From Moheibacter sediminis (GTDB lineage: Bacteria; Bacteroidota; Bacteroidia; Flavobacteriales; Weeksellaceae): DNA of 64,000 nt. The position numbers and the translations under genes were made by a program. The stretch covers positions 124,001 to 188,000 of the forward strand of contig NZ_FWXS01000003.1 of NCBI RefSeq assembly GCF_900176425.1, written 5' to 3'. Shown piece by piece: positions 20,069 to 58,300 of this stretch (position 1 is the first letter of the stretch; each line of letters opens with the position of its first letter). Under the pieces are notes generated by a model. That model made no database searches and was not told the origin of the DNA. It saw only the letters and a list, made by a program, of their open reading frames with translations.

Positions 20069-20126
20069 GAAAAAACACCCTCATCCATAATAGACGACGG
20101 TGTTTTTTTCTAACCAACCTAAACCT
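20069..20126 (-). ncRNA. predicted small RNA, copy 1 of a two-copy cassette
   Basis: On the minus strand a -7 box TACCTTTG (20138-20131) precedes a transcript expected to start near 20126. It begins AGGTTTAGGTTGGTTA, identical over 16 bases to copy 2 at 58233-58248. It ends in a hairpin ACACCGTC...GAGGGTGT with a run of T. Size is about 58 nt. No ribosome site with a sensible coding frame is seen. It lies in a convergent gap between the ABC permease and the MFS gene, as an independent unit. Confidence 0.65.
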
Positions 20127-20160
20127 GAAGCAAAGGTATATGGGCAGAATCATATATACC

Positions 20161-20178
20161 ATACCAAGATCTTGGTAT
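20161..20178. promoter_or_regulatory. palindromic operator-like site of small RNA copy 1
   Basis: ATACCAAGATCTTGGTAT is a perfect 18-bp palindrome. It lies exactly 22 bases upstream of the -7 box, the same distance as the related palindrome of copy 2. Confidence 0.65.
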
Positions 20179-57982: not shown

Positions 57983-58075
57983 TAGGCACCTGCCGGGCTG
58001 CTCCGGGCTTCGCTTCGCTACGGTGCTTCATTGCATTTCGCACCGCTCCTTAAAGTCGCGCCCTGCATATCCCTG
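57983..58075. repeat. G+C-rich intergenic repeat, type B
   Basis: Runs from TTAGGCACCTGCCGGGCTG through GGGCTTCGCTTCGCTACGG to a CGCGCCCTGCATATCCC end. Composition and style are like the 47210 block, and this wording recurs in flavobacterial intergenic repeats as I know them. Confidence 0.5.
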
Positions 58076-58188
58076 GTGCAGATTCTTTATAAAACTGAAT
58101 TCGATAGAGAAAAGATGTGGGTCTTTGAGATTAGGAGAAGAACTGAAAGTCCGGTTATTTAATGAAAAGTTGTTGCAAAATTTATAAA

Positions 58189-58248
58189 ACAAAAAACACC
58201 GTCATCCATTACAGAAGACGGTGTTTTTATTTTAACCAACCTAAACCT
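58189..58248 (-). ncRNA. predicted small RNA, copy 2 of a two-copy cassette
   Basis: On the minus strand a -7 box TATCTTTG (58260-58253) leads to a transcript from about 58248, starting AGGTTTAGGTTGGTTA (identical to copy 1 over 16 bases). It ends in the perfect hairpin ACACCGTC...GACGGTGT with a T run. The 13-base loop shares ATGGAT with copy 1. It lies between convergent genes. Confidence 0.65.
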
Positions 58249-58282
58249 GAGGCAAAGATAAAGGCGTATAAACAAATACAAC

Positions 58283-58300
58283 ATACCAAATTCTTGGTAT
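58283..58300. promoter_or_regulatory. palindromic operator-like site of small RNA copy 2
   Basis: ATACCAA-ATTC-TTGGTAT has the same 7-bp arms and 4-base spacer as the site at 20161-20178, and is again 22 bases from the -7 box. Confidence 0.65.

What the first reader, a model, noticed from the sequence alone, without database searches (positions are those of the whole stretch)
20069..20178. Two-copy small RNA cassette with fixed architecture (second copy 58189-58300)
Seen: both loci, 38 kb apart, share in the same order 7-bp palindrome arms ATACCAA/TTGGTAT with a 4-base spacer, exactly 22 bases, a TAnnTTTG -7 box, an identical 16-base transcript start (AGGTTTAGGTTGGTTA) and a hairpin terminator ACACCGTC...GGTGT with a T run. 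The rest has diverged, so selection has kept the promoter, tag and terminator. Both lie in convergent gaps, away from gene promoters. Inferred: a family of about 58-nt trans-acting RNAs under one regulator that binds the palindrome; the exposed G/T-rich tag could pair with target messages.
Basis: partly seen in the sequence, partly recalled or inferred. Interest (0 to 1): 0.75.

Follow-up and report, generated by a model that had tools for sequence, protein, structure and literature searches.

The report
Multi-copy tagged small RNA family
This bacterium (by relatedness a Moheibacter, phylum Bacteroidota) carries twelve copies of a short RNA element, ten of them predicted free-standing small RNA genes and two in the tail ends of ordinary messages, all showing almost the same exposed 16-letter tag; seven are probably switched on by one two-component regulator, the family is new to the RNA database searched, and what the tag acts on is not yet known.

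Summary
The 16-base tag occurs 10 times exactly (12 members with 1-2 mismatches) in the 3.2-Mb genome. Seven of its eight perfect palindromes lie 22-23 bp from the -7 box of a tag RNA. Members are short RNAs (promoter, tag, terminator: both window copies plus two), two-hairpin RNAs (5' hairpin, exposed tag, terminator) and 3'-UTR versions. The family is found in 5 of 33 sampled Weeksellaceae genera; both hairpins covary (16 of 16 pairs) around a near-invariant unpaired tag; Rfam has nothing. The palindrome also lies 21-22 bp from the -7 box of a small secreted-protein gene divergent from a TPR-kinase/NarL-type-regulator operon in four Moheibacter genomes, and the regulator's close ortholog is confined to this genus. 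So a LuxR/NarL-type regulator very probably activates sibling small RNAs, much as CiaR does csRNAs. Ancestral copies lack the palindrome, so one regulator does not run them all. Base-pairing with messages is plausible but not shown: complementarity at start-codon regions is not significantly enriched. A diverged 8-copy family elsewhere in the order suggests the design recurs.

The parts
20161..20178 (.). copy 1: perfect palindromic operator ATACCAAGATCTTGGTAT, centre at about -43.5
20131..20138 (-). copy 1: -7 box TACCTTTG, 22 bp from the operator
20111..20126 (-). copy 1: tag AGGTTTAGGTTGGTTA, predicted first 16 nt of the RNA
20070..20108 (-). copy 1: terminator hairpin with T run
   Evidence: z = -4.8 for the whole RNA
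20069..20126 (-). copy 1: predicted small RNA, about 58 nt (class A)
   Evidence: match to model R2 (C9:144067-144145)
58283..58300 (.). copy 2: perfect palindromic operator ATACCAAATTCTTGGTAT
58253..58260 (-). copy 2: -7 box TATCTTTG, 22 bp from the operator
58233..58248 (-). copy 2: tag AGGTTTAGGTTGGTTA
58192..58228 (-). copy 2: terminator hairpin with T run
58191..58248 (-). copy 2: predicted small RNA, about 58 nt (class A)
   Evidence: match to model R2 (C9:182188-182301)

Best explanation
The two window loci are class A members of a 12-copy family of sibling regulatory RNAs. Each free-standing copy is a separate gene: promoter, an unpaired G/U-rich tag (AGGUUUAGGUUGGUUA) and an intrinsic terminator, with or without a 5' hairpin before the tag. 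Seven copies, including both in the window, are activated by a LuxR/NarL-type response regulator (P0001) that binds ATACCAA-N4-TTGGTAT as a dimer, centred at -43.5/-44.5, beside RNA polymerase; the same regulator controls a small secreted-protein gene next to its own TPR-histidine-kinase operon. Other copies, including the ancestral ones, are transcribed from promoters without the palindrome. When the kinase is stimulated the pool of identical tags rises, and the tag acts in trans, most likely by base-pairing near the start codons of several messages and blocking translation. Shown by sequence: copies, anatomy, covariation, fixed operator spacing, conservation. Inferred with good support: the identity of the regulator and activation. 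Inferred without direct support: base-pairing and the targets.
For: Tag 10x exact, 12 members in all. Free-standing copies combine a -7 box, tag and terminator; -7 box to tag is exactly 4 nt in class A, which puts +1 on the first A of the tag given the -12..-5 placement of TAnnTTTG mapped in F. psychrophilum (PMC9723704). Covariation in both helices: 16/16 pairs with changes on both sides, score 0.669 against at most 0.20 for slid pairings. Tag unpaired and nearly invariant across genera. Palindrome to -7 box gap 22 (class A), 23 (class B), 21-22 at sRNA and small-protein promoters of other Moheibacter genomes, and no full box at that spacing at the palindromes inspected in other genera. Palindrome copies mostly lack a -33 TTTG, non-palindrome copies mostly have one. 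Palindrome between the small secreted-protein gene and the TPR-HK/RR operon in 4 of 4 genomes inspected. RR = Response_reg + GerE, kinase = TPR + HisKA_3 + HATPase_c. RR orthologs at 67-73% only in the six genomes of the genus; next best 45%; palindromes per genome 8, 7, 3, 2, 1, 0 there, mostly 0-1 elsewhere. The site reads TACCAAG-AT-CTTGGTA, the 7-2-7 layout of NarL sites, and NarL can activate from a single site at -44.5 (PMC7419079).
Against: No expression data were available. Antisense matches to the tag are not enriched at start-codon regions of 862 sampled genes; in 289 ortholog pairs with M. lacus conserved pairing is only marginally above shuffled tags (P about 0.05-0.11). Five copies lack the palindrome. 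Some genomes of another genus also carry several palindromes (g10: up to 5), so the site alone is not specific. The TPR-LuxR protein P0005 also neighbours a palindrome and could be a second or alternative binder.
Confidence: 0.7

Rival explanations
1. Protein sponge: the exposed tag, with its repeated GG dinucleotides in a U-rich context, binds an RNA-binding protein, and many copies (plus 3'-UTR tags) titrate it, as CsrB/RsmZ RNAs titrate CsrA.
For: Tag identical over 16-22 nt across genera while everything else diverges; tag also present in 3' UTRs of a secreted-protein gene and just after ftsZ; no antisense enrichment at start-codon regions.
Against: Only one tag per RNA as a rule, whereas known sponges carry many sites (established knowledge); no RRM_1 protein in this genome; no candidate protein identified.
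Confidence: 0.2
2. The tag RNAs are regulated by the TPR-LuxR one-component-like protein P0005 or by several NarL-type regulators rather than by P0001.
For: A perfect palindrome lies between P0004 and P0005; copy C14:557053 lies directly behind another HK/NarL-type RR pair.
Against: The palindrome is conserved at the P0001 operon in four genomes and P0001 orthologs track the genus; at the P0004/P0005 site the correctly spaced -7 box points to P0004, not P0005; copy C14:557053 has no palindrome.
Confidence: 0.15
3. Internal part of a transposable or other repeat; promoter, tag and terminator are by-products.
For: Copy number varies between species and the sites differ; tandem copies exist.
Against: Homology between copies starts near the operator and ends at the terminator, with no shared flanks except one local tandem duplication; stems covary; no match in plasmid or phage collections.
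Confidence: 0.03
4. Short open reading frames (small peptides) rather than regulatory RNAs.
For: A reading frame happens to run across each window copy.
Against: The terminator stems change freely with compensatory changes, so there is no common peptide; the tag holds no ATG.
Confidence: 0.02

Closest known systems
csRNAs of Streptococcus (CiaRH two-component system)
   Same: Several nearly identical small RNAs switched on by one response regulator; two stem-loops flanking an unpaired conserved stretch, some with the terminator stem only; the unpaired stretch often holds CAU, a possible anti-start codon (PMC3091779). Here class B has UUUUCAU before the tag and class A only the terminator stem.
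   Different: No sequence relation shown; the regulator is LuxR/NarL type with an inverted repeat, not CiaR with a direct repeat; Bacteroidota messages lack Shine-Dalgarno sequences, so the tag is not anti-SD; targets unknown here; copies without the operator and 3'-UTR copies exist.
FopS/GibS sRNAs of Bacteroides thetaiotaomicron
   Same: Same phylum; 14 paralogs of about 65-70 nt with a shared 5' seed; one member 3'-UTR derived; the phylum's usual -7 type promoters (PMC11697453).
   Different: FopS RNAs bind the RRM-1 protein RbpB, but no RRM_1 protein was found here; an operator palindrome with a response regulator is not described for FopS; seed sequences could not be compared.
Qrr sRNAs of Vibrio (LuxO)
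   Same: Multiple sibling RNAs under one response regulator.
   Different: Qrr RNAs use sigma-54 and Hfq (established knowledge); no sequence relation expected; different phylum.
Rfp sRNAs of Flavobacterium psychrophilum
   Same: Independent small transcripts in the same order, same promoter type (PMC9723704).
   Different: Median 176 bp; no multi-copy tag family is described in the parts of the main text read.

Membership tests
Sibling sRNAs under a two-component regulator (csRNA-like design) | several small RNA genes with own promoter and terminator sharing a conserved unpaired stretch | tested here: met
   (at sequence level; no transcript data)
Sibling sRNAs under a two-component regulator (csRNA-like design) | shared operator of a response regulator at fixed position | tested here: inconclusive
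   shared operator at 21-23 bp from the -7 box is shown for 7 of 12 copies; that the response regulator binds it is inferred
Sibling sRNAs under a two-component regulator (csRNA-like design) | pairing with translation initiation regions | tested here: inconclusive
   no significant enrichment in about a third of the genome
csRNA proper (CiaR regulon) | CiaR direct repeat TTTAAG-N5-TTTAAG | tested here: not met
   the operator is an inverted repeat ATACCAA-N4-TTGGTAT; CiaR repeat from PMC3091779
FopS/GibS (Bacteroides) | shared 5' seed sequence R1/R1' | not tested
   the seed letters were not in the text passages read
FopS/GibS (Bacteroides) | binding by the RRM-1 protein RbpB | tested here: not met
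   no RRM_1 match in the genome; the same search found it in a Bacteroides control
Any Rfam 15 family | covariance-model match at gathering score | tested here: not met
   none for the window and 11 family loci
NarL-type operator | 7-2-7 inverted repeat near the promoter | tested here: met
   TACCAAG-AT-CTTGGTA centred at -43.5/-44.5 (7-2-7 and -44.5 from PMC7419079)
NarL-type operator | bound by the phosphorylated regulator | not testable with these tools
   needs EMSA, footprinting or ChIP
Transposable repeat | homology between copies beyond the gene-like module | tested here: not met

The most novel reading that the evidence does not exclude
The tag RNAs are a widespread, so far undescribed regulatory RNA class of Flavobacteriales, with one or two ancestral copies per genome, which lineages have independently amplified and placed under lineage-specific palindrome-binding regulators (NarL-type in Moheibacter, another operator in a different family), acting on many messages through one universal seed, or on an unknown RNA-binding protein, in genomes without the RRM partner known from Bacteroides.
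Probability: 0.35. Interest if true: 0.8.

Novelty: new variant of a known kind. Interest (0 to 1): 0.62.

Why it matters
Small-RNA regulation in Bacteroidota is known mostly from Bacteroides. This gives a second multi-copy family with a candidate master regulator, a consensus structure with strong covariation, a natural comparison between ancestral and regulator-driven copies of the same RNA, and a genome without RRM_1 proteins, so the question of how such RNAs find targets without the known protein partner becomes testable. It also gives a promoter class (operator 22 bp from the -7 box) from which the regulon of an unstudied two-component system can be read from sequence.

Tried and rejected
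Rfam at gathering score: nothing; the sub-threshold hits are far below their gathering scores and taken as chance. Antisense targets by near-exact match to the tag complement, genome-wide, and with the start codon included in 11 genomes: no convincing target seen. Duplex-energy scan of 862 start regions: 17 at or below -16 kcal/mol against 12.0 +/- 4.4 for shuffled seeds; exact k-mer matches not enriched. Two-genome conserved pairing: a first run with 40 shuffles looked better than the run with 140 shuffles (P 0.05-0.11), so I do not claim it. RRM_1 partner: absent. Mobile-element origin: rejected.

Full report
Observation. The predicted RNAs of 58-60 nt fold with z about -4.7 and keep the tag single-stranded.

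Genome-wide. The window is G000:C9:124001-188000 of a 3.23-Mb genome. The tag occurs 10 times exactly; with the 1-mismatch copy at C17:73056 and the 2-mismatch copy behind ftsZ (C18:24960) there are 12 members. The other 1-2 mismatch hits show no promoter-tag-terminator setting and are not counted. Perfect palindromes number eight, seven of them upstream of a tag. The eighth and a one-mismatch ninth are promoter sites of two small secreted-protein genes.

Anatomy. Class A (four copies, both window copies included) starts with the tag; by the -12..-5 placement of TAnnTTTG in flavobacteria (PMC9723704) +1 falls on the first A of the tag. Class B (five copies) has a 5' hairpin, UUUUCAU, the tag and the terminator. 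One variant, AGGTTTAAGTTGGTTAGGGGG, precedes an ECF sigma-factor gene here, in genus members and in another genus. Two tags lie in 3' UTRs: behind the small secreted-protein gene P0003 (C14) and behind ftsZ (C18; ftsZ named from its sequence); the orthologous secreted-protein gene in G005 has a double tag.

Conservation. A covariance model finds members in 30 of 198 sampled family genomes, 5 of 33 genera. An exact pattern scan of named genomes places them in Moheibacter, Empedobacter, Faecalibacter, Chishuiella and Weeksella. One ancestral locus lies beside pepP and rpsF (or argS) across genera (rpsF and argS named by eye from the sequence, pepP by Pfam). On 43 distinct sequences both helices covary: 16 of 16 pairs with two-sided changes, score 0.669 against at most 0.20 in slid controls. 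That alignment was fitted to the model, which favours the structure, but the slid controls use the same alignment. Between copies of the own genome, homology ends near operator and terminator.

Regulator. The palindrome lies between a small secreted-protein gene and a TPR-HisKA_3 kinase / LuxR-type response regulator operon in four Moheibacter genomes. A -7 box (6 of 6 or 5 of 6 positions) lies 21-23 bp from the palindrome at the sRNA copies that have it and at the secreted-protein promoters in four species, while the palindromes inspected in other genera show no full box there. The centre is therefore at about -43.5/-44.5. The site has the 7-2-7 layout of NarL sites, and NarL can activate from -44.5 (PMC7419079). 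The regulator's ortholog is found at 67-73% identity in all six genus genomes and nowhere else above 45%; palindromes are enriched there and, for unknown reasons, in some genomes of genus g10. Activation rather than repression is inferred from position and from the usual lack of a -33 element at these copies.

Function. Not shown. The conservation of the tag with free variation elsewhere says the tag is the working part. Pairing with start-codon regions was tested in 862 genes and in 289 ortholog pairs and is not significant; a handful of targets would escape such a test. No RRM_1 protein was found in the genome, so the Bacteroides RbpB/FopS arrangement does not apply as such. By analogy with csRNAs (PMC3091779) and GibS/FopS (PMC7366714, PMC11697453), trans-acting base-pairing is the leading hypothesis and protein titration the main rival.

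Recurrence. In an order-wide search (296 genomes) weak matches appear in other families. One genome, G038, holds eight copies of a related design with its own tag, TTTCATAGTTTAAATTAGTTAG, including three copies within about 400 bp, and at least three copies share a different palindrome-like block, TTTTGAATTTCAAAA, upstream. Whether this is common descent or convergence is open.

Verdict. A real, multi-copy, conserved and very probably regulated RNA family, absent from Rfam; a new variant of the design of sibling sRNAs under a response regulator; targets unknown.

Noticed in passing
G038 (loci L279-L286, L260): Another Flavobacteriales family has eight copies of a diverged tag RNA (TTTCATAGTTTAAATTAGTTAG), partly in tandem, at least three with the upstream block AAATTTTGAATTTCAAAAAATAAA, suggesting a different operator.
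   Followed up: partly
L063:9961-9976 (G000:C18:24960-24975, minus): A tag plus terminator sits directly behind the ftsZ stop codon, a possible 3'-UTR-derived RNA of ftsZ.
   Followed up: partly
L058:6961-8950 and tag at G000:C14:557053: One tag RNA without palindrome lies directly behind a different histidine kinase / NarL-type regulator pair.
   Followed up: no
L061:6437-6940 and relatives (L035, L046, L049-L051, L158): The AAGTTGGTTAGGGG variant RNA lies about 90-135 bp upstream of an ECF sigma-factor gene in several species, so it may also act on that gene in cis.
   Followed up: partly
L054:8052-8387 and relatives in L124, L125, L129: Small secreted protein of 111-113 aa divergent from the kinase operon, weak similarity to a type IX secretion sorting domain, very short predicted 5' leader; conserved part of the regulon, function unknown.
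   Followed up: partly
window 57985-58080: G+C-rich stretch (CACCTGCCGGGCTGCTCCGGGCTTCGCTTCGCTACGG...) near copy 2 that looks like a dispersed repeat.
   Followed up: no
genus g10 genomes (G065, G081, G103): TACCAA-N4-TTGGTA is also over-represented (4-5 per genome), although these genomes gave no tag RNA match; reason unknown.
   Followed up: no
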